From the IMG/VR virus record IMGVR_UViG_3300042691_044733, positions 62,001 to 126,000 of that record: a stretch of 64,000 nucleotides of DNA. One strand, 5' to 3'. The stretch comes from a virus. The notes under the pieces are model-generated. The model saw nothing but the letters and a program-made list of their open reading frames with translations, was not told the DNA's origin and did not search any database. The translations under genes and the position numbers were made by a program. How positions within the stretch are numbered: position 1 is the first letter of the stretch; every line of letters begins with the position of its first letter. Positions 1,826-53,255 of this stretch are shown in pieces.

Positions 1826-4090
1826 TTATAATATACAACTAAAATCTTTTTGTTCTAAATCAGTTCTTATTCCTAAATCATCAGTATCTTCTTTCTGTTC
1901 TCCAAACTCATAAAGAGTTTTCATTTTAAAATCTCCAAATTTACTTTCATCATTTAAAATGGCTTGAAAAAAATCTTGAAATAATTCAATTCCAGTTCTA
2001 AGATCTTCAAAATTTTTACTATTTAAATTCTCTAAAACAGGAGTTCCAAAAAATTTCTCCATTATAGCATTAAAGAATTCTATAAGTTGTTCAATAATTG
2101 AAGAATGTTTTTTCTTTATACCTAATGTCTTTTCATATTTTTCTAAATGTTTTTGATATGCTTCTTTAAGTGCTGGTTCATTTGCTACTAAAAAATCATA
2201 CATTGGACGTAAGTAATCATGTTTTTCATCAACAATGAATATTTTATCTGGATCAAAATTAGGAGTTAATGTTAACATTATTGTACCTACAAGATCAGGA
2301 AATATTTCAATTGTATCGTCTTGATTATAACCTCTAGAACCAACACCTTTAATTTGATAATTTTTAAAAGCATCAGTAGGATTAACAGCTAAATCTTTAA
2401 TAAAATTATGAATATCAGCTCTTAATTTTGGATCATTTATATTTAAAGCATAATCAATACTATGACCTAATTCATGAGCAAACACATAATGAAAGTGATT
2501 TTTTCTCCCTCTCATTGTACTTTTAAAAGCTATCTCAAAAGGAGATTGCATTTCTTCATATGAAGCTAAATCTAAAGATTCTAAAAAAGTGCTTGTAAGA
2601 TATCTATGCAAACTATAAAGATTTGGATAGGTATCAAGAATATAATCTTCAATTTTAGAATGTGTTTCAACTAACAGTCTATTGAAATTTTCCATGTATT
2701 CTTTTGTAGGAAGTCCTTTTTTTTCTGTAGCATTATATATAAGAATTTCAATTAAATGACGTTTAACCATCATGAATGAATCATCTTTTCTATAAACTTT
2801 ATCAGTATTTTTATAGTAATGTTCTGCCATGTCAACTACAGAACTATTTAACTTTTTAATATCTTCTTTTGTTATTTCTAATTCTGGGTATGCTTTCATA
2901 AAATCATAAATAGCAACATTTAAAGACATGAATGAATTAGTTTGCTGAAGAAGTGAACCTTTTATTAATGATTTTATAGGATTTATTTTTTGAGCTGTTT
3001 TTCCGTCTCTAGAATTAATTTTATTACCATCTACTCTAAAAAATCCAGTAGCATCTTCAAGAATAATTAATCTTGCTAAGTGAGCATTTGGTAATTGTCT
3101 TAAAAGATTTAAAATAGCATCAAATTCTAAATCAGAATAATCTTTATGACTAAGTAAATTTTCTAAAAATGTTTTGATTAAATTATCCTTATCTTTTGGT
3201 TTATTCAATTTTTGAGCATCTTCTTTTAATTTATCAGCATAAGAATTAAAAAGATCTATTAAGTCTTGGTACTCATCATCCGAAATATTTAAATTATCCT
3301 TTTTAAAAGTTTCGTTTTGAATTGTTGCATATAGAGATTTAATAGTATCAAGAGCACTTTTCATAAAAAAGCTGCTAACTAATTTTTCAGAAACTATTCT
3401 TTCAGCAATCAGTATTCGTTGTTGTTTAAGTTTTTGGCGAACTAATTCTTTTTTTGATTTTTTATATTGTTCTTGTTTAATTTTATTTTTTTCATCTCTT
3501 AATTCATGATAAGAAAGGATATCAATTTTAATTTTGAATATCATTTCTCCAGTGTCAATCCACATATATGTATTACCATCTGATTCTTTTCTGATGATAG
3601 CCAGATTGGGTTTATCATTCAACAAAAATCCTTTTTCAGTTTCAGAAGGTAAACGTTTTCCTTGAGAAGATGTTACATAAGTTTCCCATTTTGTTTTTTC
3701 AGAATTAGTTAATACATAGGCATACCTGTCATTTATAAACTCTATCCCGAAATTAACTTTTAAAAAGTTTCTATATTTTTTAGACCTTGAGTTTGTTATA
3801 GTAGGATATGGATCTTTTTCGGCACCATATTCAAATAATTCTTCTACTCCTGGTTTTATTTGTGGTTGTGATTTTAATTCCTCCAAAGAGATATTAGTTT
3901 TGGAGAGCAAAGTGATATAAGTACTAGTTTCTAAATCTAATTTAGAAGGATAGTTATTCAACCCATTTCTAGATTGCCACATTGCTATATCAGCAGCAAG
4001 AGATGAAATGTATGGTTCAGTAAAATTAGATCCATATAATTGTTTATATAGACTCTTGAAGTCTTTACTTGTTTTTAATACACAGTGCAT
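1826..4090 (-). CDS. Giant-gene-cluster protein with HELGH metallopeptidase motif
   Basis: 754 residues from the ATG at 4090. A longer frame would need a TTG at 4099 that overlaps the previous gene, while the ATG sits two bases after that gene's stop. The middle is Lys/Glu-rich and helical. Around residue 539 is FAHELGHSIDYAL, a textbook HExxH zinc-binding motif, followed roughly 65 residues later by an acidic stretch (DDTIEIFPDL) that could supply the third ligand as in gluzincins. It lies directly after the RNA polymerase gene and before another HExxH protein. I infer a virion-packaged metallopeptidase-like protein. Its substrate is unknown; prohead or cargo maturation, or cell-envelope passage, are guesses. 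Confidence 0.85.
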   Translation of the reverse strand: MHCVLKTSKDFKSLYKQLYGSNFTEPYISSLAADIAMWQSRNGLNNYPSKLDLETSTYITLLSKTNISLEELKSQPQIKPGVEELFEYGAEKDPYPTITNSRSKKYRNFLKVNFGIEFINDRYAYVLTNSEKTKWETYVTSSQGKRLPSETEKGFLLNDKPNLAIIRKESDGNTYMWIDTGEMIFKIKIDILSYHELRDEKNKIKQEQYKKSKKELVRQKLKQQRILIAERIVSEKLVSSFFMKSALDTIKSLYATIQNETFKKDNLNISDDEYQDLIDLFNSYADKLKEDAQKLNKPKDKDNLIKTFLENLLSHKDYSDLEFDAILNLLRQLPNAHLARLIILEDATGFFRVDGNKINSRDGKTAQKINPIKSLIKGSLLQQTNSFMSLNVAIYDFMKAYPELEITKEDIKKLNSSVVDMAEHYYKNTDKVYRKDDSFMMVKRHLIEILIYNATEKKGLPTKEYMENFNRLLVETHSKIEDYILDTYPNLYSLHRYLTSTFLESLDLASYEEMQSPFEIAFKSTMRGRKNHFHYVFAHELGHSIDYALNINDPKLRADIHNFIKDLAVNPTDAFKNYQIKGVGSRGYNQDDTIEIFPDLVGTIMLTLTPNFDPDKIFIVDEKHDYLRPMYDFLVANEPALKEAYQKHLEKYEKTLGIKKKHSSIIEQLIEFFNAIMEKFFGTPVLENLNSKNFEDLRTGIELFQDFFQAILNDESKFGDFKMKTLYEFGEQKEDTDDLGIRTDLEQKDFSCIL

Positions 4091-40829: not shown

Positions 40830-40869
40830 ATAAAAAACAGGAGAGGAGAGCTTAACTCCCTCTCCTGTT
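40830..40869 (-). terminator. Strong intrinsic terminator after the 430-residue structural gene
   Basis: AACAGGAGAGG (40836-40846) pairs perfectly with CCTCTCCTGTT (40859-40869), an 11-bp stem. On the minus strand it is followed by TTTTTATTTTA. It separates the head/connector transcript from the fibre genes. Confidence 0.85.
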
Positions 40870-40888: not shown

Positions 40889-42181
40889 TTAATCTTCAAA
40901 AACTGGTAATACTCTCTCACAAGCATCTGCACAGTTCATAGTTTCCAACTGCACACAGTCAGCACCATTTGCATTCTCCAACCAAGTATTTACAAAATCT
41001 TCAAAATCTGTATCAGGAGATTCAACTATAATCTCAAGCAGGTATTGATCATTATCAAACACACCAGTTGGGTTGTTGAAACGCGGTACAGAGTGTTGAA
41101 TGTAGTATCTGTAGTAACTTGAAGTTCTTGAGATAGTATCAGTTACATCATAACCTTGAGTAATCTCGCGGATACGCAGATCCATTCCAGTATTGAAGAA
41201 AGTTTGACCATATGCTTCAGAAAGAATTAACTCTCTTACAATGTTCTCACCAAATCCACTTCCTTGAATAGGAGCACAGGTTTTATTTACACACAATCCA
41301 GTGAATGCACAAGGATCACCGTTATAATCAACTTCAGAAGCAAGAACAACAACTGGTTCAAGTTTTGCGATAATTGAATCACTTGGATAGAAAGTGCAAT
41401 CTCCAAAAGTAGTATCAACATAAGCACCATTTATGATAAGACCTGCAAGTGTATCTGCTGGAGTAGGATTTGCTGGAAGTGCAGTAGTTCCATTGATGTA
41501 ACCAAGCAGAGTTGCTAAGTTAGCTTCAGAAGAGGTACCATCTCCAAGTTGCAACCAGCTAACACCAGCATCAATGCTGTAAGTAACTTGTACTTGAACA
41601 AATGGATTAATCAAAGGACTTCTAAGGAAATTGTAAGCCCACTGAACATAAACCATCAAAGGGTTAACAGCAGTTGGAGTTTCTGGATCTTCACAACAAC
41701 CAGTGTAAGCATCAGCAGTAAAGTAAGTATTACGTGTCAAGAAACGCAATACAGGTGAACCTTTAATATCAAGACGCATGTAGTATGTTTGACCACACAT
41801 AAATTGTTTTTCACATGCACCAGGAGTTTCATAGTTCTCAACATTCAAACCAATAGTTACTTGAGTTTGTTGAGGATTACATGGGTCAACACGATAAAAC
41901 TTACGAACATACTTTGGGTTAATGGTCTTTGATTTTACTGACTCCTTGTATCCACCATGAAATGGACCAATTTTGTCATTGCTATAAATAGATCCTGCTG
42001 CAAGCACCAGTGGACATTTGAGAGTAGTAGTACCATCAAGTGTAGCTGGAACTGCCCAGGTATTAGGGTCAACAAAGGTAAATTCTCCCTTTGTTAATGC
42101 AGATGTAGTGGTAGCCGCAGTTTTAACGAAGGCATCTGTACCAACGAAAACTTTATTAAAGGCATGATTAAAATAAGACAT
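40889..42181 (-). CDS. Abundant-type virion structural protein, candidate auxiliary head protein
   Basis: 430 residues, beta-rich with Thr, Asn, Pro and Cys (for example CGQTYYMRLDIKGSPVLRFL, then FVQVQVTYSIDAGVSWLQLG). The C-terminal part has DCVQLETMNCADACERV. Unlike its neighbours it has its own promoter-like element (42237-42250) and a strong terminator. Its codon use, with many GCA/ACT/GTT codons, also looks more optimised than that of surrounding genes, so high expression is likely. In crAss-like phages an abundant non-capsid structural protein lies near this position. I infer a head-decorating or vertex protein. No catalytic motif or signal peptide was seen. Confidence 0.7.
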   Translation of the reverse strand: MSYFNHAFNKVFVGTDAFVKTAATTTSALTKGEFTFVDPNTWAVPATLDGTTTLKCPLVLAAGSIYSNDKIGPFHGGYKESVKSKTINPKYVRKFYRVDPCNPQQTQVTIGLNVENYETPGACEKQFMCGQTYYMRLDIKGSPVLRFLTRNTYFTADAYTGCCEDPETPTAVNPLMVYVQWAYNFLRSPLINPFVQVQVTYSIDAGVSWLQLGDGTSSEANLATLLGYINGTTALPANPTPADTLAGLIINGAYVDTTFGDCTFYPSDSIIAKLEPVVVLASEVDYNGDPCAFTGLCVNKTCAPIQGSGFGENIVRELILSEAYGQTFFNTGMDLRIREITQGYDVTDTISRTSSYYRYYIQHSVPRFNNPTGVFDNDQYLLEIIVESPDTDFEDFVNTWLENANGADCVQLETMNCADACERVLPVFED

Positions 42182-42236
42182 AAATTTTTGTTTTAAGGGT
42201 TATATACAATTAATTCAATATAATTAATATTTACTA

Positions 42237-42250
42237 TTATTCCAAATTTA
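42237..42250 (-). promoter_or_regulatory. Promoter-like TAAATTTGGAA element before the 430-residue structural gene
   Basis: On the minus strand TAAATTTG (42250-42243) matches the Bacteroidota -7 box TAnnTTTG and is followed by GAA, like the early promoter motif TATnTTTGGAACTC on the plus strand. It overlaps the ferritin stop codon and lies about 60 bases before the structural gene's ATG. No TTTG was found near -33. Confidence 0.45.
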
Positions 42251-42790
42251 TCCTGACATTTTCTCATCGAGAAGTCGTAATGCAATTTTATCTGTACCGA
42301 ATGCTTCTAATTGATCCATCCAGTTTTGCATTTTATTATGCTCTTCAACTTGTTCTTTTAAATATTTAAGTGCTAATTCATAAAGCATATGATCACCTTT
42401 TTTAAAAGCTTCAGTCGCAAGATCTTTACACTGTTTAGATACTTCAATTTCATGGTCGTAAGAAAGTTTAATTATTTCTGGTAAACCCGAAAATAGTTGC
42501 TGCTGCATTGATAATGCAGGTGTTTGAGGTTGAACCCCAAAGGAAAGTAAATATTCTCTTGACCAGTCTGCGTGAGTTAGTTCTTCATTAGAATATTGTT
42601 TCCATAATTTTGCAGCACCTTCATATCCTTTATTATTTAACCATAAAGACATTGAAAGATAAAGTCTAGAACTTAATTCCTCTTGTTCTATTCTATAATT
42701 CAAATACTTAACACACTCCTCGGATAACAGAAAATTAGGAGCTGCTGTAGGAGGTATTTTTTGAAGTCGAGATATTTTGTGTTCTATCAT
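42248..42790 (-). CDS. Ferritin (bacterial FtnA type) with complete ferroxidase centre
   Basis: 180 residues, a four-helix-bundle iron-storage protein. It aligns without gaps to E. coli FtnA from my memory of that sequence, with a constant offset of 20. All ferroxidase residues are kept: E37 (FtnA E17), Y44 (Y24), E70 (E50), H73 (H53), E114 (E94), Q147 (Q127) and E150 (E130). Key blocks are EELSSRLYLSMSLW, EGAAKLWKQYSNEELTHADW, YDHEIEVSKQ and YLKEQVEEHNKM. It is not a Dps, given its length and intra-subunit site. FtnA-type proteins form 24-mer cages that oxidise Fe(II). Its ATG overlaps the stop of the upstream connector gene (ATGA), so it is co-translated with virion genes. An extra N-terminal 20 residues precede helix A. 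Confidence 0.93.
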   Translation of the reverse strand: MIEHKISRLQKIPPTAAPNFLLSEECVKYLNYRIEQEELSSRLYLSMSLWLNNKGYEGAAKLWKQYSNEELTHADWSREYLLSFGVQPQTPALSMQQQLFSGLPEIIKLSYDHEIEVSKQCKDLATEAFKKGDHMLYELALKYLKEQVEEHNKMQNWMDQLEAFGTDKIALRLLDEKMSG

Positions 42791-43488
42791 TTATTTTCTT
42801 CTATTTTTTGATTAAGTCTTTGATATTGATTTGTAGATTCAATATCACCTGAAATTATCTGAGCACAAATGTCTATTAAAAGTTCTGTAATATCTTCTTT
42901 AAATTCACATTCTATATCTACTGTAGAGGTATTGAAAGTATAAGGATTGACACAATCAAGTATTTGTATTTTCTCTGGTAGTCTATAGTATGTTAAAGTA
43001 CATTCATCAATACTGAACTCTCCATTTGTATAAATTCTCAGTTTATTATCTACTACTGTAACAACTGTTTCACCCCATTCGTAGTTGGGTTTCTTTAATT
43101 CATCATTTAAAATAATATCAATATTTGATTCTTCAACCAAATAAGTTATCATTTTTTTAGGTTTATCACAGCAAGAATTACTTGAAATCAGAGTCACCCT
43201 TTTGTATTCCATAAAATCCTCTGGGAGTAACTCTGATTCATAGTAATTTCCACGATTAACAGTAAGTAGTTTTTCAGTTTTAACAAGAACCTGTAAATCA
43301 TCAATAGATCTAACAGATTGATCATTACCAGGTGTAGCAGTTTTTGGTGCAATCTTTTCTCTACACCAAGTAATCATTCCTTTATTAAATGCTTCAACAA
43401 TTTGCCAACACTCAATGTTATCATAGTCTTGACTTGATAATTTATTGACTCGTTGTTTTACTTTTAACTGTAACGTATTGTTAAGCAT
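42787..43488 (-). CDS. Head-tail connector / ring-type structural protein
   Basis: 233 residues. The N-terminal helices (LSSQDYDNIECWQIVEAFNK, then MITWCREKIAPK) precede a beta-rich body (ELLPEDFMEYKRVTLISSNS with a CC pair, then VVTVVDNKLRIYTNG). A C-terminal helix follows (ITELLIDICAQIISGDIEST). This arrangement recurs in crAss-like portal-proximal ring proteins and in the later 223-residue gene at 32497-33168. It shares ATGA with the ferritin gene downstream. Placement directly under the portal is inferred from synteny. Confidence 0.7.
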   Translation of the reverse strand: MLNNTLQLKVKQRVNKLSSQDYDNIECWQIVEAFNKGMITWCREKIAPKTATPGNDQSVRSIDDLQVLVKTEKLLTVNRGNYYESELLPEDFMEYKRVTLISSNSCCDKPKKMITYLVEESNIDIILNDELKKPNYEWGETVVTVVDNKLRIYTNGEFSIDECTLTYYRLPEKIQILDCVNPYTFNTSTVDIECEFKEDITELLIDICAQIISGDIESTNQYQRLNQKIEENK

Positions 43489-43496
43489 CTAATTAA

Positions 43497-43643
43497 TTAA
43501 TGACAGGGTTCAACTTTTGCTGGTGAATTAGTTCCACCAACTCTTCCACCTGGCTTAGTTTGTACTTCTAGTTTTGGACTTTTAGTTGGTCCTACACCAT
43601 TTGAACCAGGTTTAGTTTGTACGGTTGCGGGTTTGTTTTTCAT
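43497..43643 (-). CDS. 48-residue tandem-repeat basic peptide
   Basis: Starts at the ATG at 43643, four bases after the upstream stop; an upstream extension would overlap that gene. After MKNKPAT come two copies of a 19-residue unit: VQTKPGSNGVGPTKSPKLE and VQTKPGGRVGGTNSPAKVE, then PCH. The composition (Pro, Gly, Lys, Ser, Thr) is that of a disordered linker-type peptide. It sits between a head gene and a connector gene, so it may be a small capsid or DNA-associated peptide. No family was recognised. Confidence 0.6.
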   Translation of the reverse strand: MKNKPATVQTKPGSNGVGPTKSPKLEVQTKPGGRVGGTNSPAKVEPCH

Positions 43644-43647
43644 ATTA

Positions 43648-44658
43648 TTAACTATTCCATTGTTTTTCAACTTTATTGAGAACATCTCCTAAGATCTGGT
43701 CATTGATTGGGTTTTTAAGAAACTCAAGTACATCACTTGCATTTCTACCAAGCATGGCATTACTTTCAGTGTGGTAAATAAAACCATCTGATTTTAAGAT
43801 AATTATCTTATAAAACAATGCATCTTTAATAACTGATCTTAGTTTTAATGTCTCCATATCTTGTGCAGCAGCATTCAAGAAATCTTGCGATGCTCTGTAT
43901 GCAGATTTTTCAAAACTAAGCCCATTAATGAAATTATCCATGTTTTCATAAATAACATCATTAGGAGTATCTTTTTTGTATTGTACACTATTGAGATCAA
44001 CAATTTTAGCAACATACTTCAGTTTAACTGGAGTTTTGTCATACAATTTTTGAAGTTCTGAAAGTGCTTTATTTTTGATTTTCTTCATCTCAGTTTTTGT
44101 AGAAACTGTATCAATGAATCTATCAAGGAAAAACTTAGGAGCAACTTGTCTATTTTTAGCATCCTCGTATGATTTTGCTACAAGACTAAATCCACCTGCA
44201 TCTATAGCATGGAGTTTGATCCTATCAAATACGTTAGCAACTGGATCAAGGAATACAGGATCATTGCCACATCTCAGTGTAATTTTTGACCAAAATTCAT
44301 CGTTATCTGGTCTTAACAATTTTACTTTATTCCAGAATTGTGGGTCCTCTGGATCTATAACATTGGATGCAATTTCTTTTTCAATTTCAGAAACTGCTTT
44401 TCTAATTTCTTTAATTTTTGCCTCCCTTAATTCTTCATCGGGAATTTTTTTAATTTCTGGAGCAAACTCATTGAGACCTGTTAAGTATCTTTTTACACCA
44501 TTTGCTTCAATACAAGCTAATTGCTCTTCATGATATACATTATCAAAAAGTACTTGGTTAGCTCTTTCAAGTCCCATATTTTGGGAGTTTGTAATAAAAG
44601 GTTTAATACTTATTGAACCTGATTTACTTTTAATATTATATTCTGCTACTGTTATCAT
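43648..44658 (-). CDS. Head-module protein downstream of the major capsid gene
   Basis: 336 residues. Mostly helical and charged (IPDEELREAKIKEIRKAVSE, then MKKIKNKALSELQKLYDK), with a short beta segment near the C-terminus (ALFYKIIILKSDGFIYHTES). It begins right after the terminator that follows the capsid gene. Genes of this size immediately after the capsid gene are regular in crAss-like genomes and encode head-associated proteins. No catalytic motif, signal peptide or membrane segment is seen. The specific role is not known to me. Confidence 0.7.
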   Translation of the reverse strand: MITVAEYNIKSKSGSISIKPFITNSQNMGLERANQVLFDNVYHEEQLACIEANGVKRYLTGLNEFAPEIKKIPDEELREAKIKEIRKAVSEIEKEIASNVIDPEDPQFWNKVKLLRPDNDEFWSKITLRCGNDPVFLDPVANVFDRIKLHAIDAGGFSLVAKSYEDAKNRQVAPKFFLDRFIDTVSTKTEMKKIKNKALSELQKLYDKTPVKLKYVAKIVDLNSVQYKKDTPNDVIYENMDNFINGLSFEKSAYRASQDFLNAAAQDMETLKLRSVIKDALFYKIIILKSDGFIYHTESNAMLGRNASDVLEFLKNPINDQILGDVLNKVEKQWNS

Positions 44659-44674: not shown

Positions 44675-44717
44675 TAAAAAATTTGATTAATGGGGGGAAT
44701 AAACTCCCCCCATTAAT
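44675..44717 (-). terminator. Very strong terminator after the major capsid gene
   Basis: ATTAATGGGGGG (44686-44697) pairs perfectly with CCCCCCATTAAT (44706-44717), a 12-bp stem with an 8-nt loop. On the minus strand it is followed by CAAATTTTTTAAAAA. It probably lets the capsid gene be expressed above its downstream neighbours. Confidence 0.88.
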
Positions 44718-44765: not shown

Positions 44766-46394
44766 TTAGAACGATCCACCTGTAATAGGGTTTCTCATTA
44801 CAATTTTCAAAACTTTGGTTGGGTCTTTTACCCAAATTGCTGGCATTGTTTGAGTCATATAAACTCGGTAACCATTGAATTGACCAGAACTTTGGAATCC
44901 TTGGTGACGACCCATGTAATCCATTGTTCCGTTTTGGTACCACCATTTCAGTTGATTATCCCATTTAAGTTTCAACAGGAAGATGTTATCATTTGTATTA
45001 TCAGTAATATCAAAGATAACAAAGTTGTAACTTGAAAGTGGGAAACCATCAATGATTGGGTTCTCAATATCATTTGTGTGAACGTTATCAAATGCAGGGT
45101 TAATTACAAACTTAACGTTTGCTAAGAATGGGATCACATAGCTAGTAAATGCAAATCCAAAGTTCAGATCCATTCCTTTACCAGTGATAGCACCAATACC
45201 TGCATCACTTGCAGCTTGGATAACCAAACCAGAGTTAACTGCTTCTTTCTTGATAGCTTCATTAACAAGTCTCATACCTCCAAGACCAGTCTGAACAATC
45301 AGTTGTCTTTTTGGATCAGGACCAGCAAACTCAACTTTACCATTATAGAAGTTATAAAGCTCTGATCTAAACAAATCAAGGTTAAAACCTGATTTATTAT
45401 AAATACGTTTGAATGAGTTGTCAAGTTGTTTCCAAAGACCTACAGACAATCTTACATCATCTGGACCATCTTGTTTAACCTTACCACCTTGTCCCCACAT
45501 CAGATATGTTTCAATATCATTAGAGATTTTAGACAAGTGACGTGCTTCAAGTGTAGTCAAGAAAGTTCTGCTAAGAGAACCATTTGATACTGCTTTTTTG
45601 AAGAAGTCTTTACCCATTTTCTTAATGTAAGAATCCAAGTTAGTGATAGAAGGGTCAATGTTCTGGTCAAAGTTTCTCCAGATTTCTGTAACAGGTACAG
45701 TACCATCTGCATTCATTCCACCTTTAATCATCATGTCTGCACGTGAACTTACGGAGTAATGTACGTGTGCTTCAGCACCACCCACAAAATTGTAGTACTC
45801 ACGGAAACCTGATTGAACTTGAAGGTCGGAGAAACGCTCACCATACTCTCCTCTTGCAGAACCTTTTCTGAAGATTTTAGTTCCTGAAGCAAGATATTTG
45901 TTATCAAGGAATTTAACACTGTCGTTGTTCACAAGTTGAACTGTGTAAATAAAACCTTCACTACCATAAGGGATGATGTCCTCGCTAGGAACTACATACA
46001 TCTCAGCACCAGAGTATTTATCATAAGTGATGATATCACCATGACCAAATTCTCTACGTGAAAGTTTTATTTTAAAAGTAGTACCATCAATACCTTTAGT
46101 GGTATTACTTGGTTCAATATCTTCCAAAATGTAAGGAAGATCCTGAACTACAGGTACTTGCCATTTATATTCACCACGTGGGTGGTCAACTTCAATGACA
46201 TTTTTTCCATTAAAATTGGACATTTGGTACAGAGGCATTTCTACCTTTTGTGCCATTGCCCACAAATCAACAGGACCCATATCCATAGGTTCTGATGTTC
46301 TCAGCATATTCTGAAGGTGATAAGAATCAACATGTGAAGATGCTTGATAATTTGTATCACGTAGGAATATACCATTGTTTAAAACTGGTGTCAT
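44766..46394 (-). CDS. Major capsid protein (HK97-fold, crAss-like)
   Basis: 542 residues. The N-terminus (YQASSHVDSYHLQNMLRTSE, then MGPVDLWAMAQKVEMPLYQM) and central segments (FREYYNFVGGAEAHVHYSVS, then VPVTEIWRNFDQNIDPSITN) have the pattern of the crAss-like major capsid protein. The position fits: TerL, portal, scaffold, then capsid, with a homing endonuclease gene inserted just before it. A 12-bp-stem terminator follows closely. No N-terminal pro-domain is obvious, consistent with a separate scaffold gene. Confidence 0.88.
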   Translation of the reverse strand: MTPVLNNGIFLRDTNYQASSHVDSYHLQNMLRTSEPMDMGPVDLWAMAQKVEMPLYQMSNFNGKNVIEVDHPRGEYKWQVPVVQDLPYILEDIEPSNTTKGIDGTTFKIKLSRREFGHGDIITYDKYSGAEMYVVPSEDIIPYGSEGFIYTVQLVNNDSVKFLDNKYLASGTKIFRKGSARGEYGERFSDLQVQSGFREYYNFVGGAEAHVHYSVSSRADMMIKGGMNADGTVPVTEIWRNFDQNIDPSITNLDSYIKKMGKDFFKKAVSNGSLSRTFLTTLEARHLSKISNDIETYLMWGQGGKVKQDGPDDVRLSVGLWKQLDNSFKRIYNKSGFNLDLFRSELYNFYNGKVEFAGPDPKRQLIVQTGLGGMRLVNEAIKKEAVNSGLVIQAASDAGIGAITGKGMDLNFGFAFTSYVIPFLANVKFVINPAFDNVHTNDIENPIIDGFPLSSYNFVIFDITDNTNDNIFLLKLKWDNQLKWWYQNGTMDYMGRHQGFQSSGQFNGYRVYMTQTMPAIWVKDPTKVLKIVMRNPITGGSF

Positions 46395-46408: not shown

Positions 46409-47008
46409 TTAATTGTTTGTTTTATTGTTTACTAAATATTTAAAATTTTCTGGCATTTTTTCATCTGGTTTTAAAAACTTAACTATTTTACCATCTGTTA
46501 TTTTTTTATAACCTTTTGTAGATTTATTGCCGAGGTGTGCTAAAGACATTTTATTTTTTGTTTCTTCAGACCATTTTTTACCTAAATTGTTTTTATGTCC
46601 TTTTCTGGAATCTGAAAATTTTTGTTTTTGTTCTTCATCCCACTTATGATTAAGTGCATATTTGTTACCTATCATTCTTAATTTTAAAAGTTGTTTATTT
46701 TCTTCACTTATAAAACCTTTAATGGAACCAGACCCAAAATTAAGAACATTTGCTAATGTTCCAGATTTATCTATTATTTTACCATATAATTCTATAAATT
46801 CTTTTTCTTTTTCAATAGCTTGTTCAAAAGTTAAATCTTCTAATATAATCTCAACTTTATACTTTCCAGAATTTTTATTTACAATATTTAACCATAATTT
46901 ATTACGACGTTTATCTTTAGATCTATTATAAGTTTTTGAAAACTTTCCTAAACCTATATAAAAAACTTGGTTTTTATCTGGTCGTATATGTCTATATATA
47001 TAATACAT
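46409..47008 (-). CDS. GIY-YIG homing endonuclease with NUMOD3 motifs
   Basis: 199 residues. The N-terminus MYYIYRHIRPDKNQVFYIGL holds the GIY-YIG catalytic fold (YIYRH and FYIGLGK), followed by KTYNRSKDKRRNKLW with the conserved Arg, and EKEFIELYG with the metal-binding Glu. The C-terminal half has NUMOD3-type DNA-binding repeats: HKWDEEQKQKFSDSRKGHKN, KKWSEETKNKMSLAHLGN and a final KITDGKIVKFLKPDEKMPEN. It lies free-standing between the scaffold and capsid genes with gaps of 14 and 24 bases. It is a mobile homing gene whose likely cleavage site is in a related phage's capsid or scaffold region. Confidence 0.9.
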   Translation of the reverse strand: MYYIYRHIRPDKNQVFYIGLGKFSKTYNRSKDKRRNKLWLNIVNKNSGKYKVEIILEDLTFEQAIEKEKEFIELYGKIIDKSGTLANVLNFGSGSIKGFISEENKQLLKLRMIGNKYALNHKWDEEQKQKFSDSRKGHKNNLGKKWSEETKNKMSLAHLGNKSTKGYKKITDGKIVKFLKPDEKMPENFKYLVNNKTNN

Positions 47009-48310: not shown

Positions 48311-51079
48311 TCATTTCTTTTTCTTTGCATCTTGTTTTAATTTACGTTTTGCCATCAACTCTGCACTTGTTTTATTCTCTCTCGCAATCATTAAATTATT
48401 ATCGCTAATTTGTTTTTTCAACTTTAGATCTTCTCTTTTAAGATCTATTACCTGCTTATCATAGTTTTCTTTTGATATTTGTTTCTGTCTTTCAAGATCC
48501 ATTGTTTCAGAATACTCTTGTGAAGCTTGAATTCTATCAAGTGCATCAAGATAATCTGAGTTCTGATTTTGATTAAGATCTTGCATAGAACCATAACCAG
48601 CAGCTTGAATTTGTCTTTCAATGATACGTGCTTCTCTATCTTTCTGATTTTCAGAAGCTTCAAATTGCATATCTTGAATTTTCTGTTGCTGTTCAAACTC
48701 AAGTTGTTTTTGCTGCATTTCATTTTCATGCTGCATTTCTTGCTGTCTTTGTTGTTCAAGTCTATCTTGAGACTCTTTAAGAATTCTAGAAACTTCAGAA
48801 ATACTTTCAGATTTTATAATATTACCAAGATCATAGATACTAGCACCAGAAGTATTGTTTTCTATCGCAAGTCTTTTTAATTGCTCTAAAACATTTCTAT
48901 GATTTGCTTTTGTAGAAATAAAAATATTAAGAGATCTCATTAACAATTCTGTTCCATTTATCTCAAATATCTTTTTCTGGTTAGCAGTTGTCATATATTG
49001 TAATCTAACACTTGGTTTAGTTGAGTTATAATACTGCGCTAGATCAGTTCTCATTTGATGTACTCTTGGCATCAAGTAATCACTATGTTGTACAAAATAC
49101 ATCTCAGTTTGTGCATAACTTGCATTGAGAGATTGCTGAATACCTGTAGCGGTTTCTGTGGTTATGTTCTGACCCATTCTTTGTGGAGTAATGCCTATAA
49201 CCTCAAATGCTTGCGTTTTAAAGTAATTGGCAAGCTCTACACGAGACATTAACCTTTGGGTTTGTTCAAGGTTTAATGATTGAAAATGCTGGAAATTTAA
49301 AGCATTTTCTGTATTAGTAATTGTAGTATCAAGAGGTAAGATTTGGAAGTTCTTCATCGCCATGTAAGCCTTAGAGAAATTATTTTTACCCCAATCTTCA
49401 CCCATAGATTTTTTAGGTAATGCATTTTGATCTAGAACAATTATTGTCCCTAATTCGTCAACTAAAATATCTGCAATTTGATTATTTACAATGTTATATC
49501 CAATCTGGAATGGTTTCATTAAATCTACCATTGCTGTAGATCTCATGGATCTATCACTGAATACTGACCCTTCTACAGGAAGCTTACACCCATACAAGGT
49601 AGAATCACCCTTAAATTGAAATTTAAGTGGTCCTATTTTGTTTTGGTTAATTCCTAAGTAGATTGGATTCATTCCTTCTGGGTTATTTGATCCCCAGAAT
49701 GAAGGTTTATTAGGTCCTATTTTAATTCCGCCCCAAGTTTGATTTATCCAAATCCACTCAATATGTTCACCAAACACTAAATTCTTTTCATCTTTATTTT
49801 TGTACAATGAAGTATCATAAACAGCCTTGTCAGTTATTTTATAATCCTCATCTACAATTGCTTTAATTATTTCACCTTCTTCTGTAATCTTCGTAAGATA
49901 TCCAACCTTTCTTTGTGATTTCCAATATGCTGTAGTGACACGTAATAAATTAGTGTTACCAACATCCATATAATCTTCACTTTCACTAAGTATCCAGTTT
50001 ACAATATCTGTAGTTTGATATCTATCATCATAGGTTGACATAAACTGTCTATAACCTAATGAAGGCATATTTGTATTCCAGGAGTGAGATTTAGTTGCAT
50101 CATAAAAAGTACCATCATTTTGATAACCCCCTATAGCATAACCAGCAGATCTTATTGGGAATATTGATTCTAAGGTTTCTAACTGATCTTGTGTCATTAA
50201 CCAACCATAGTTGTCAATAACATCAGCAGCAGTCATCATATCAAATTTACCAACCCATTGACTTTCAGATATATATCTCTTATCTGGTGATTTATGGTAA
50301 AATACTAATAGTGGGTTCCATAATTCAATCTCATAATCATCATCCATCATTTTAAAATGCCAGAACTCTCTATCAGTAATAAGCATGTCTTTAAATGCTC
50401 TTTCTTCAAGTTCTTCCATTTTAAATCTTTCAACATCAATTTGGTGTTGATGATTTGCCCATTCTTCAAATTGTGATCTATAACTTTGTTCGTAAAATTG
50501 TTGTATTTCAGGTAAATTTTTGATTGCTTCTGGAGAAATCATTTGTTGCATTTCTTCCTCAGAAGGTTCATAACCAGATTCTTGTAATTGAAATAGAATT
50601 TTAGATTGTGCATCTGCAATTAAAGCTTGTTCAACCTCAGCTCTTTTCTTTTCAAGTAATTCATTATATGAAATATCATCAACTGCAATGTAATGAATGT
50701 TTGAATTTCTTTTAGCAAACTCAGAAACCAATGTATTTACAACATTAGGAATAATAGGATAAAATTTAAGTTCTAATGCACCATTATCTTCTTCTACTAA
50801 ATTACTTATAAGATCTGAATATTCTGTATCTGATTCTACTATATAGTCGGTTTTATCAATTATACCCTTTGCCAGTTTATAATTCTTTTGAAGTCTTCTT
50901 GCATTTCTTCTGACATGCATTAAACCTCTCCATTCCAGCCAATCCATGTTCCATTGAGTCCACTCCTCATCCTTTTCAATTCTTGGTAGAAATTGAACTG
51001 GTTGCGTAAGAGTACCCATCCTATTGTTCTTTTCTACCTTTGCCCCATTCTTGAGCTGTAAACCATTATAAATTTTCAC
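48311..51079 (-). CDS. Portal protein
   Basis: 922 residues. The frame opens with a GTG at 51079, one base after the TerL stop; the first ATG is at 51019 and would give 902 residues. Portal-type features are the central core (NMPSLGYRQFMSTYDDRYQT, VEGSVFSDRSMRSTAMVDLM), the long wing/crown helices (QSLNASYAQTEMYFVQHSDY, then MPRVHQMRTDLAQYY) and a Gln/Glu-rich coiled-coil C-terminal barrel (QQQKIQDMQFEASENQKDRE). It is large, as usual for crAss-like portals. The dodecameric portal connects the capsid to the tail and works with TerL encoded just upstream. Confidence 0.9.
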   Translation of the reverse strand: MKIYNGLQLKNGAKVEKNNRMGTLTQPVQFLPRIEKDEEWTQWNMDWLEWRGLMHVRRNARRLQKNYKLAKGIIDKTDYIVESDTEYSDLISNLVEEDNGALELKFYPIIPNVVNTLVSEFAKRNSNIHYIAVDDISYNELLEKKRAEVEQALIADAQSKILFQLQESGYEPSEEEMQQMISPEAIKNLPEIQQFYEQSYRSQFEEWANHQHQIDVERFKMEELEERAFKDMLITDREFWHFKMMDDDYEIELWNPLLVFYHKSPDKRYISESQWVGKFDMMTAADVIDNYGWLMTQDQLETLESIFPIRSAGYAIGGYQNDGTFYDATKSHSWNTNMPSLGYRQFMSTYDDRYQTTDIVNWILSESEDYMDVGNTNLLRVTTAYWKSQRKVGYLTKITEEGEIIKAIVDEDYKITDKAVYDTSLYKNKDEKNLVFGEHIEWIWINQTWGGIKIGPNKPSFWGSNNPEGMNPIYLGINQNKIGPLKFQFKGDSTLYGCKLPVEGSVFSDRSMRSTAMVDLMKPFQIGYNIVNNQIADILVDELGTIIVLDQNALPKKSMGEDWGKNNFSKAYMAMKNFQILPLDTTITNTENALNFQHFQSLNLEQTQRLMSRVELANYFKTQAFEVIGITPQRMGQNITTETATGIQQSLNASYAQTEMYFVQHSDYLMPRVHQMRTDLAQYYNSTKPSVRLQYMTTANQKKIFEINGTELLMRSLNIFISTKANHRNVLEQLKRLAIENNTSGASIYDLGNIIKSESISEVSRILKESQDRLEQQRQQEMQHENEMQQKQLEFEQQQKIQDMQFEASENQKDREARIIERQIQAAGYGSMQDLNQNQNSDYLDALDRIQASQEYSETMDLERQKQISKENYDKQVIDLKREDLKLKKQISDNNLMIARENKTSAELMAKRKLKQDAKKKK

Positions 51080-51080
51080 G

Positions 51081-53255
51081 TTATCTTAAATTTTTAAAAA
51101 GAGATCTGTGCGAAGTACTCCTACCAATATGATTAAATGGTAATACCTCTAATTTACTAAATTTTTTTGAATTTTGCAACTTATCATTATCATTTTCAAC
51201 ATGTCGTTTTTTATAACCTTTATTTGCTTGTTGAATTTTAACAAACGCAATGAGTGCTGCAAATGAAACTAACCTATCCACGTTGAGATCTTCTTGATAA
51301 TTTTTCATTTCTGCAAGCAGCATTTTATCAGGTATTCTCTCAACTCCATAAGTTATTTTTTTAATTTTACCATCATTAAATTCCTCTACCGCTAATTCCT
51401 CACGCAGATATTCTACAGCATAACCAAGTAAATTATCTTTAAATAATCTACCCATGTTTCTCCATCCATATTCTTGATAACCATTTGCGCCAGATGCTAA
51501 ATCTTTTAGAAAAACCATTTGATCTTTTGGTACCAAGTATTTCTGTTTTTTATGTTCAATCATGTATTGTATAAAACTATACACGTTATTTTCTACAATT
51601 GTCCATGCATTATACCATTCGATCAAATGTAATAATCTTTCATGCGTTTTATTAATATCATCAAATCTACCACACCAAGCAGCAACTATTTTACCTTCTT
51701 CTACGTGTGAAGTAAATCCATCTGGAGTTTTTGTAGTTACTTCTACTGAATTCTTATAGATATAAATAGAACACAATGATTCTGAAGTTGATGTTTTACC
51801 AACTGCTACTGGGTCAACTGATGCATAATATAATCCCCATTCAGGATCTTTTAGAGGTCTTTCCCATACTACTATAGATCCTTCCTTATTCTCTGAGGAT
51901 TTAGGAAATGGAAATTCTGATATTGGTAATTTATCAGTTCCCTTTGCAACTATTTCACCTTTTTCATTTTTATACAAATCAACAAATTCAAATGGATAAT
52001 CCTTATTATCAATTCTGATTTCTTGAGCTTGAATTAAATGCTGTGGGAATATGGATACGGTTCTATAGTCAAATGCTTCTTTAATGTTTCTTGGATTCTG
52101 AGAAACCCTTAACTGATACTGATCGGGTGGTAATTCTTTTTTCCATTTTGCAAATTGCTCATTTAGTGCTTCAAGTGCTTGTTCGACTTGGGAATTACCA
52201 TATTGATCTATATATGGTAACATAGACCATTGTTCTGGTATAAATAAACCAGATCTTCCTATAGTTCCTTTGTCATCAATTAAATTTGTTTCTACACTGT
52301 AGATATCATTTCTATCTGGAAATAAGGTTAATTCTTTAAGTGGATCACACTGATCCAAATCACCCACAGATCCAGCTGCAATAAACATACCTGTAGTAAC
52401 CATACCAGCTTTTAAAGCAGGTCTCATATAACCATAAGTTTGATCCATTTTAGGAGCAATACCAGCCTCCTCATGAAAGAAGTATTTTACAGGTCCACCA
52501 ACACCAGTTGTTGCATCCTTTTCAAAAGACATACCTTGTAGAGTACCTTTTAAACCAACTTCCGCTTTCTTGTTATTTTTCCTAACCTCAATCTTTTGTT
52601 GCCACATCAAAACCTTATTGGGGTTCATCGGTCTATACCATGCAGTATGCTCATTTAGGAATGCAGCATATTCATTGAAGAATCTCCAAGTACCTTTTTC
52701 ATTTATATAATCTTTTAGGTTAGCACCAATTTTTAATGTTACCCCTTCTTCAAACCATAATTGATTTATTAATTTACCTGCATGGTAATAACTGGATGCA
52801 AACTGACGTTTCTTTAGAATACTACAGTGTTTATAATGTAACTCTGCTAAAGTTTCATAGAGTGCCATATGATACTGACCATCACGTACTTTAGCAAAAC
52901 CAAATTTTTGTTCCTCTTTGTCAAAGATTGGTAGAAAATTTAACCACATATAATAATCTCTAGGAATATACCAGGTTTCTCTATCATCTCTAAAAATTAC
53001 TCCTTTTCTGCATTTTGATTTTTGGTCATCCCAGTATTTTAAATAATCCTTGGTATTTTTTGGTGTTTCGGAATAAAAACCATCCCTATTGAAATTACGT
53101 GCTTGTTCATTAAACAAGAGACTAATCTCATTAAAGTTATAATAACCTGGTTCTCTAAATAATGGTTTTACGAAGTTTTTAAGATCTTCTTTGTTCTTAA
53201 ACCCTTCGTAATCCCATTTACCACCCGAAAATGAAGGGATAATTATTTCTTCCAT
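51081..53255 (-). CDS. Terminase large subunit
   Basis: 724 residues, longer than average. The ATPase part has a degenerate Walker A region (SILKKRQFASSYYHAGKL) and a Walker B, KYFFHEEAG, with E262 and E263. A conserved TTGMFIAAGSVGD coupling motif follows. The nuclease part has YYASVDPVAVGKTSTSES with D481 as the first metal ligand, and later VENNVYSFIQYMIEHKK. It packages DNA into the prohead through the portal encoded next. Its start overlaps the upstream HExxH gene by 13 bases. Confidence 0.93.
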   Translation of the reverse strand: MEEIIIPSFSGGKWDYEGFKNKEDLKNFVKPLFREPGYYNFNEISLLFNEQARNFNRDGFYSETPKNTKDYLKYWDDQKSKCRKGVIFRDDRETWYIPRDYYMWLNFLPIFDKEEQKFGFAKVRDGQYHMALYETLAELHYKHCSILKKRQFASSYYHAGKLINQLWFEEGVTLKIGANLKDYINEKGTWRFFNEYAAFLNEHTAWYRPMNPNKVLMWQQKIEVRKNNKKAEVGLKGTLQGMSFEKDATTGVGGPVKYFFHEEAGIAPKMDQTYGYMRPALKAGMVTTGMFIAAGSVGDLDQCDPLKELTLFPDRNDIYSVETNLIDDKGTIGRSGLFIPEQWSMLPYIDQYGNSQVEQALEALNEQFAKWKKELPPDQYQLRVSQNPRNIKEAFDYRTVSIFPQHLIQAQEIRIDNKDYPFEFVDLYKNEKGEIVAKGTDKLPISEFPFPKSSENKEGSIVVWERPLKDPEWGLYYASVDPVAVGKTSTSESLCSIYIYKNSVEVTTKTPDGFTSHVEEGKIVAAWCGRFDDINKTHERLLHLIEWYNAWTIVENNVYSFIQYMIEHKKQKYLVPKDQMVFLKDLASGANGYQEYGWRNMGRLFKDNLLGYAVEYLREELAVEEFNDGKIKKITYGVERIPDKMLLAEMKNYQEDLNVDRLVSFAALIAFVKIQQANKGYKKRHVENDNDKLQNSKKFSKLEVLPFNHIGRSTSHRSLFKNLR

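What the first reader, a model, noticed from the sequence alone, without database searches (positions are those of the whole stretch)
42248..42790. Intact ferritin gene inside the phage head/connector operon
The gene keeps every ferroxidase residue of bacterial FtnA at a constant offset (E37, Y44, E70, H73, E114, Q147, E150) and is joined by ATGA to a virion connector gene. It is therefore co-translated with structural proteins in a virus of anaerobic or microaerophilic hosts. Possible roles are storing or detoxifying iron during lysis, protecting packaged DNA, or being carried in or on the particle. I know of no characterised phage system in which ferritin is made with head-connector proteins.
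Basis: partly seen in the sequence, partly recalled or inferred. Interest (0 to 1): 0.88.

Follow-up and report, generated by a model that had tools for sequence, protein, structure and literature searches.

The report
Swappable ferritin in crAss-like phage operon
Many crAss-like phages keep a gene slot among their particle-building genes for an iron-handling protein cage, filled by either a true ferritin (as here) or a Dps-like protein carrying a similar tail tag, which suggests that phage particles are made together with, and may carry, their own iron and oxidation protection.

Summary
ORF 42248-42790 (-) is an intact FtnA-type ferritin with all ferroxidase residues, ATGA-coupled to a gene best read as the R3/R4-type tail-barrel ring protein of a crAss-like phage. 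It is not an assembly chimera. The same gene sits between ring and auxiliary-capsid genes in about 50 distinct loci and is under strong purifying selection.

The larger finding is that this position is a slot. Among 80 loci fetched by the ring protein alone, it holds ferritin (16), a Dps-like DUF5856 protein (49) or nothing (14), never both. Two phages 98-99% identical over 20 kb differ in just this gene. Both families carry the same short N-terminal motif (LKR; 0.5% of other ORFs) on a basic, disordered tail that bacterial relatives lack. A second crAss-like lineage has DUF5856 and/or ferritin between portal and capsid genes, with a different tag shared by both. Published proteomics of CsCl-purified virions detected DUF5856-type proteins in two other phage groups (PMC10892097, PMC13119998).

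Best reading: a late, probably virion-associated ferroxidase cage, addressed by its tail, that keeps iron and peroxide away from phage DNA. Virion association and function are inferred for this lineage. The anaerobic-host claim is not supported.

The parts
42248..42790 (-). FtnA-type ferritin gene, 180 aa; complete ferroxidase centre and third iron site
42734..42790 (-). codons 1-19: disordered basic N-terminal tail (MIEHKISRLQKIPPTAAPN) absent from bacterial relatives; carries a relaxed form (RLQK) of the LKR tag shared with the Dps-like slot proteins
   Evidence: pLDDT <50 for residues 1-14; motif statistics; tail charge
42787..42790 (-). ATGA overlap: stop of the ring-protein gene and start of the ferritin gene
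   Evidence: sequence; gap of -4 to +21 nt conserved across the lineage
42787..43488 (-). ring protein gene (233 aa), crAss001 R3/R4 type by position and weak profile match
   Evidence: phrog_29507 virion structural E 2e-10; csAssE-Sib 'ring protein'; crAss001 gp35 weak
42182..42247 (-). 66-nt spacer between ferritin and the next gene; 40-90 nt in most relatives
40889..42181 (-). gene directly downstream of the slot (430 aa), position of crAss001 auxiliary capsid protein gp36; same neighbour in the related loci
   Evidence: function by synteny only
43497..43685 (-). 62-aa low-complexity ORF between the next gene upstream and the ring gene
43648..44658 (-). 336-aa gene in the position of crAss001 gp33, first gene after the major capsid gene
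   Evidence: by position
44686..44717 (-). strong terminator-like stem (14 pairs) after the major capsid gene; probable upstream border of the transcript that holds ferritin
40844..40860 (-). weak terminator-like stem after the 430-aa gene; possible downstream border
   Evidence: weak
44766..46394 (-). major capsid protein (Crass_capsid PF23898, E 2.8e-31)
48311..51079 (-). portal protein (phrog_6547, E 6.6e-88)
51081..53255 (-). terminase large subunit (phrog_6681, E 3.3e-53)

Best explanation
The gene encodes a catalytically complete FtnA-type ferritin that fills a dedicated slot in the late virion operon of a large lineage of crAss-like phages. The slot is for a ferroxidase cage as such: a ferritin or a Dps-like DUF5856 protein, each displaying the phage's own short basic N-terminal tag on a flexible tail. 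The cage is made together with ring and capsid proteins. Most likely it is brought to the assembling particle or its DNA by the tag, where it oxidises and sequesters Fe(II) (with O2 or H2O2) and so suppresses Fenton damage to the genome being packaged or carried. Shown here: family, intact active site, synteny, translational coupling, slot exchange, shared tag, purifying selection. Shown by others: DUF5856 relatives in purified virions of two other phage groups. Inferred: 24-mer assembly, virion association of this protein, what the tag binds (DNA or a virion protein), the protective function.
For: Ferritin family, active site and fold. Slot content in 80 loci found with the ring protein alone: 16 ferritin, 49 DUF5856, 14 neither, 1 undetermined, 0 with both. 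Of 24 long records (84-127 kb), 11 have ferritin only, 10 DUF5856 only, 3 neither, none both. L028 and L030 are 98-99% identical over 20 kb but carry ferritin and DUF5856 respectively; identity runs through the first 12 codons of the slot gene and resumes within the last 4-5 codons. On the ring-protein tree the ferritin label needs at least 10 changes even if only well-supported branches are kept, 18 on the tree as drawn. Exact LKR in the first 15 residues: 29/50 ferritins, 23/41 DUF5856 proteins, 4/745 other ORFs of the same loci, with 12 codon spellings among ferritins. All 93 tails have positive net charge, against 46% of other N-termini. The tag follows genomic context: 46/50 ferritins in this lineage against 1/7 in other contexts carry the relaxed motif (Fisher 4e-5), although the two sets are mixed on the ferritin tree. 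In the second crAss-like lineage, where both genes stand in tandem, both start with a DINK-like tag. DUF5856 keeps the Dps positions H51, H63, D78 and E82 invariant, and its profile finds Dps in the PDB (E 1e-5). DUF5856 genes follow portal or head-tail adaptor genes in unrelated phages. Mass spectrometry of CsCl-purified virions found the DUF5856 protein gp217 of Sajous1 (PMC10892097; identity of the gene checked) and a 'starvation-inducible transcriptional regulator' (the product name borne by DUF5856 genes in T4-like phages) in two Klebsiella phages with 26 and 27 spectra (PMC13119998). Purifying selection: dN/dS 0.01-0.18 in 14 pairs.
Against: No virion proteomics exists for this lineage. 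In crAss001, whose Dps-like gp7 lies outside the virion operon, the structure paper lists other cargo proteins (gp45-47, gp49, gp50) and not gp7 (PMC10172136). Some lineage members lack any slot gene, so the function is not essential in all conditions. Presence in CsCl-purified virions does not exclude contamination, as the Sajous1 authors say. A 24-mer (about 12 nm) would hardly pass the portal, so it could not be injected intact. The window's own tag is a weak version (RLQK) of the consensus. The DUF5856 fold match to Dps is moderate (TM about 0.6, best E 4e-3).
Confidence: 0.52

Rival explanations
1. Soluble late-infection ferritin: the cage stays in the cytoplasm, sequesters iron freed by host breakdown and protects replication and assembly, and is in the late operon only for timing. 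The N-terminal tail is a Dps-style DNA-binding tail that coats intracellular phage DNA rather than a packaging signal.
For: Dps and catalase genes in other gut phages were read this way (PMC8008677). All tails are basic, as in bacterial Dps. crAss001 carries its Dps-like gene outside the virion operon.
Against: The gene keeps to positions inside the virion module in two crAss-like lineages and next to portal genes in unrelated phages, and DUF5856 was detected in purified virions (PMC10892097, PMC13119998). The tag is lineage-specific rather than a generic basic tail.
Confidence: 0.3
2. Ferrojan horse: iron-loaded cages on or in the particle supply iron for binding to siderophore receptors at adsorption.
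For: Proposed for Sajous1 by its authors because ferritin-like gp217 was in the virion (PMC10892097).
Against: TonB- and FeoB-deficient Salmonella were infected as well as wild type (PMC10892097). A ferritin core is shielded ferric mineral and does not present chelated iron. The slot lies beside ring and capsid genes, not beside receptor-binding genes.
Confidence: 0.04
3. Exchangeable host-derived cargo gene (moron or auxiliary metabolic gene) that hitch-hikes in a permissive intergenic site; position and N-terminal likeness are by-products of recombination in the conserved flanks.
For: Patchy presence with many gains and losses; nearest cellular relatives are host-type flavobacterial ferritins; in L028/L030 the shared first 12 codons could be a recombination border.
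Against: Only ferroxidase-cage families fill the slot (one exception, a 54-aa ORF in L077); the LKR tag is conserved at protein level with varied codons across deep divergence while the adjoining linker is highly variable; no own promoter or terminator stands out, and coupling is tight; phage ferritins form their own branch beside the cellular ones.
Confidence: 0.12
4. Assembly chimera or degenerate host fragment.
For: None found.
Against: About 50 distinct ferritins at the same position in contigs from many metagenomes, dN/dS well below 1.
Confidence: 0.01

Closest known systems
Bacterial non-heme ferritin FtnA (E. coli, Vibrio cholerae 3qz3, Helicobacter pylori Pfr)
   Same: Fold, ferroxidase residues E17/Y24/E50/H53/E94/Q127/E130 (E. 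coli numbering) and third site; 33% identity to 3qz3 in the structural alignment
   Different: Extra basic, disordered N-terminal tail with a phage tag; encoded and coupled in a virion operon; assembly not tested
Flavobacteriaceae ferritins (Maribacter, Winogradskyella, Lutibacter)
   Same: Nearest cellular relatives, 45-55% identical
   Different: Start directly at the first helix (MKTKSEFLSE...), no tag; chromosomal; branch beside the phage family
DUF5856 (PF19174) / phrog_858 phage proteins, including T4-like rI.-1 and Sajous1 gp217
   Same: Occupies the same slot with the same tag in sister phages; conserved Dps-type H, H, D, E positions; found in purified virions of two other phage groups
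   Different: A different cage family (Dps-like, about 120-170 aa); detectable only as a distant ferritin-superfamily relative (PF00210 E about 0.003)
Dps and manganese catalase of gut phages (Gratiaviridae and others, PMC8008677)
   Same: Phage-encoded ferritin-superfamily enzymes predicted to limit iron and oxygen damage
   Different: Reported as accessory genes; no virion slot, exchange or tag described in the passages read
Encapsulin with ferritin-like cargo (from general knowledge)
   Same: HK97-fold shell, ferritin-superfamily cargo, short terminal targeting peptide
   Different: A phage capsid full of DNA; tag is N-terminal and of other sequence; binding to the shell not tested

Membership tests
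FtnA-type bacterial ferritin | Ferritin domain above curated score | tested here: met
   PF00210 83.8 bits, cut-off 24.5
FtnA-type bacterial ferritin | Di-iron ferroxidase centre residues and third site | tested here: met
   E37, Y44, E70, H73, E114, Q147, E150 plus E69, E146, E149; kept in 72-73 of 73 relatives
FtnA-type bacterial ferritin | Four-helix bundle with short fifth helix | tested here: met
   AlphaFold2 pLDDT 86.5, helices 24-53, 57-83, 103-131, 134-164, 168-178; TM 0.93 to E. coli FtnA 1eum
FtnA-type bacterial ferritin | 24-subunit shell with iron core, ferroxidase activity | not testable with these tools
   Needs purified protein
Crassvirales (host phage) | Crass-type major capsid, portal and terminase in the conserved order | tested here: met
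   PF23898 E 2.8e-31, phrog_6547 E 6.6e-88, phrog_6681 E 3.3e-53
Dps (for the slot partner DUF5856) | Inter-subunit ferroxidase residues H51, H63, D67, D78, E82 | tested here: inconclusive
   H, H, D, E invariant in 20 sequences; the D67 position is N or G
Dps (for the slot partner DUF5856) | Four-helix Dps fold | tested here: inconclusive
   Model pLDDT 82.4; Dps among the best PDB matches, TM about 0.6, E about 4e-3; sequence profile E 1e-5 to HP-NAP
Virion protein | Present in purified particles of this lineage | not testable with these tools
   Only relatives of the exchange partner have proteomics (PMC10892097, PMC13119998)
Auxiliary metabolic gene / moron | Separate transcription unit, optional, in a variable region | tested here: inconclusive
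   Optional (14 of 80 loci empty) but ATGA-coupled within the virion operon, fixed position, no promoter excess over shuffles
Encapsulin-like targeted cargo | Short terminal peptide that binds the shell interior | tested here: inconclusive
   A conserved terminal peptide exists; its partner is unknown

The most novel reading that the evidence does not exclude
Phage capsids of this lineage act as loaded protective compartments: a short N-terminal address tag, specific to each phage lineage, sends whichever ferroxidase cage the phage happens to own (ferritin or Dps-like) into or onto the particle. Cages can thus be swapped by recombination while the address stays, a phage counterpart of encapsulin cargo loading.
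Probability: 0.3. Interest if true: 0.92.

Novelty: new variant of a known kind. Interest (0 to 1): 0.77.

Why it matters
It turns an isolated oddity into a pattern. Two ferritin-superfamily cages replace one another at one site in the virion operon of a widespread group of crAss-like phages, with a common N-terminal tag, and the Dps-like one recurs beside portal genes in unrelated phages. If the cages ride with the particle, tailed phages carry enzymatic protection against iron and peroxide. That would bear on virion survival in oxic water and gut, on what DUF5856 (an unnamed protein found in over 1,400 public phage records, including T4-like phages) does, and on how phages address cargo proteins. 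It is directly testable in T4-like laboratory phages and by proteomics of one environmental crAss-like isolate.

Tried and rejected
Assembly chimera: rejected, same gene and place in about 50 distinct loci. Degenerate gene: rejected by conserved active site and dN/dS. RNA-level or translational reason for the N-terminal motif: made unlikely by 12 codon spellings in ferritins and its rarity in neighbouring genes, not excluded for DUF5856, where one spelling dominates. Simple recombination border as sole cause of the shared tag: explains L028/L030 but not its conservation across 25 ferritin clusters at 80% identity, 22 of which have the relaxed motif. Profile search for CON, ferritin and DUF5856 homologues in csAssE-Sib, phi14:2 and crAss001: only the ring protein of csAssE-Sib was found; Pfam gives crAss001 gp7 a sub-threshold DUF5856 match (E 3.4e-5). 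Ring-protein profile against PDB sequences gave one chance hit. Ribonucleotide reductase as an oxygen marker for the host: none found, uninformative. Literature searches for ferritin in crAss-like phages and for DUF5856 gave no prior description of this slot within the held open-access library.

Full report
What is there. The ORF at 42248-42790 (-) encodes 180 aa and starts with ATG inside the stop of the upstream gene (ATGA). It is a ferritin by Pfam (PF00210, E 1.4e-23) and by PDB sequence search (V. cholerae ferritin E 2.5e-23, then H. pylori, E. coli and others). Over 73 related proteins these positions are kept in 72 or 73. An AlphaFold2 model built on 12 phage homologues gives the helices of a ferritin subunit with a short fifth helix (pLDDT 86.5; residues 1-14 disordered). 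It matches FtnA-type structures at TM 0.92-0.93 normalised to the target. The window lies in a 127-kb virus record with crAss-type capsid, portal and terminase.

The neighbour. The gene coupled to ferritin (42787-43488) has distant virion-protein matches (phrog_29507) and matches the protein annotated as ring protein in phage csAssE-Sib (profile E 3.9e-22). In crAss001 the genes after the major capsid gene are gp33, gp34 (ring R4/R5), gp35 (ring R3) and gp36 (auxiliary capsid) (PMC10172136). The match to gp35 itself is weak but collinear (E 4e-4, probability 37%). So the neighbour is best called a tail-barrel ring protein, and the gene after ferritin (40889-42181) stands where the auxiliary capsid gene stands; that last point is by position only. 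A strong terminator-like stem after the capsid gene (44717-44686) and a weak one at 40860-40844 suggest one transcript with ferritin inside.

A slot, not just a gene. The ring protein alone found 591 relatives in viral contigs, of which 80 loci were kept. This sampling does not depend on the slot content. Downstream of the ring gene these loci hold a ferritin (16), a protein of about 130-173 aa of Pfam family DUF5856 (49) or no such gene (14); one is cut off. No locus has both. Searching 24 long records completely gave ferritin in 11, DUF5856 in 10, neither in 3, both in none. L028 and L030 are 98-99% identical over 20 kb, with the same ring protein, yet one has ferritin and the other DUF5856. 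Identity runs through the first 12 codons of the slot gene and resumes within its last 4-5 codons. On the ring-protein tree of 108 rows the ferritin label changes at least 18 times, at least 10 if only well-supported branches are kept.

What the alternative is. DUF5856 proteins of the slot are Dps-like. In 20 divergent sequences H65, H77, D92 and E96 (L030 numbering) are invariant, with the spacing of E. coli Dps H51, H63, D78 and E82; the D67 position is N or G. The profile finds HP-NAP and other Dps in the PDB (E 1e-5). The model is a four-helix bundle whose best structural matches include Dps and related ferritin-like proteins, but at modest similarity (TM about 0.6). PHROGs labels the family a starvation-inducible transcriptional regulator, which looks like a name carried over from Dps. 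So one ferroxidase cage replaces another.

The common tag. Nearly all phage ferritins of the lineage have an N-terminal extension that the flavobacterial ferritins lack. LKR within the first 15 residues occurs in 29 of 50 distinct ferritins and 23 of 41 distinct DUF5856 slot proteins, but in 4 of 745 other ORFs of the same loci. A relaxed form, which includes the window's RLQK, is in 46 of 50 and 38 of 41, against 10.6% of other ORFs. In ferritins LKR is spelled with 12 codon combinations. The tails are basic in 93 of 93 cases, against 46% of other N-termini. At 80% identity the ferritins form 25 clusters, of which 22 have the relaxed motif and 16 have LKR in at least one member.

A second lineage. 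Other crAss-like contigs have the order terminase, portal, [DUF5856 and/or ferritin, in either order], scaffold-like gene, capsid (L189-L199, L136). Where both are present, both begin with a related tag: MALDINKSLV and MALDINKINF in L138/L189; MIDINKPIG and MALDINSFK in L194; MININKQIA and MALDIAKFK in L198. On the ferritin tree these proteins are mixed with those of the first lineage, so the tag follows the phage context and not the ferritin (46/50 against 1/7, Fisher 4e-5). Elsewhere DUF5856 genes overlap or directly follow portal genes of another class (phrog_156 in L202, L203, L205, L217) or a head-tail adaptor gene (L206).

Link to particles. Two published data sets contain DUF5856-type proteins in CsCl-purified virions. 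One is Sajous1 gp217, called ferritin by Phyre2 (PMC10892097; I checked that locus Sajous1_217 is PF19174 at E 1.3e-28). The other is the starvation-inducible transcriptional regulator of two T4-like Klebsiella phages, with 26 and 27 spectra (PMC13119998); I did not retrieve those two sequences, and the identification with DUF5856 rests on the product name, which DUF5856 genes of other T4-like phages bear. The Sajous1 authors warn that low counts may be contaminants. Their iron-uptake mutants were infected normally, which speaks against an adsorption role. For the present lineage there is no proteomics.

How it probably works. Coupled translation with ring and capsid proteins puts the cage at the assembly site late in infection. 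In known ferritins and Dps the N-terminus lies on the outer surface (general knowledge), so 24 or 12 copies of a basic tag would face outward, able to bind DNA or a virion protein multivalently. The cage would then oxidise Fe(II) and consume O2 or H2O2 next to the phage DNA. Steps up to the tag are shown. Assembly, target of the tag and protection are inferred. Whether the cage is inside the particle, on it, or only around phage DNA in the cell cannot be decided here.

Origin and host. The phage ferritins form a family whose nearest cellular relatives are Flavobacteriaceae ferritins (45-55% identity). This fits a Bacteroidota host but does not prove it. Selection has kept the protein functional (dN/dS 0.01-0.18 in 14 pairs).

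Limits. IMG/VR contigs carry no sample or host data in these tools. Counts of ferritin loci are biased towards ferritin and were not used for frequencies. The ring-protein tree is a quick tree with some long branches, among them the window itself, so the exact number of exchanges is approximate. Novelty was checked only in the held open-access papers.

Noticed in passing
window 46409-47008 (-): Homing-endonuclease-like gene (phrog_314; NUMOD3 motif) inserted between the major capsid gene and the 392-aa gene upstream of it.
   Followed up: no
window 43497-43685 (-): 62-aa ORF with imperfect repeats (VQTKPGSNGVGPTKSPKLE / VQTKPGGRVGGTNSPAKVE) between the 336-aa gene and the ring gene.
   Followed up: no
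L202, L203, L205, L217 (DUF5856 at about 3500-4000); L206:3950-4330: DUF5856 (Dps-like) genes directly follow or overlap portal genes of a different class (phrog_156), or follow a head-tail adaptor gene, in phages unrelated to crAss: a second, broader pattern of cage genes beside the portal.
   Followed up: partly
L089:4551-5000 (crAss001 gp7): crAss001 has a Dps-like gene (annotated DpsA, sub-threshold DUF5856 match) among tRNA genes, far from the virion ring genes and without the tag.
   Followed up: partly
L243:3926-4348 (Klebsiella phage KP27) and Aeromonas phage 31 rI.-1: In T4-like phages DUF5856 is the gene next to the lysis-inhibition gene rI (rI.-1); over 1,400 phage records carry a relative.
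   Followed up: no
L004:139-648 and 1423-1905: Gut phage contig with two ferritin-like ORFs; the first has lost several ferroxidase residues, perhaps a specialised partner subunit.
   Followed up: no
L171:1090-1689: A 5.5-kb contig binned as a Tissierellales MAG carries a ferritin that groups inside the phage family; probably a misbinned phage fragment.
   Followed up: partly
L123:3926-4492, L148:587-1162, L124:3893-4516: Ferritins of the phage family in a third and fourth setting, upstream of terminase genes, with other N-terminal sequences.
   Followed up: partly
L077:10724-10888: One locus of the ring-protein set has a short hydrophobic 54-aa ORF in the slot instead of a cage gene.
   Followed up: no
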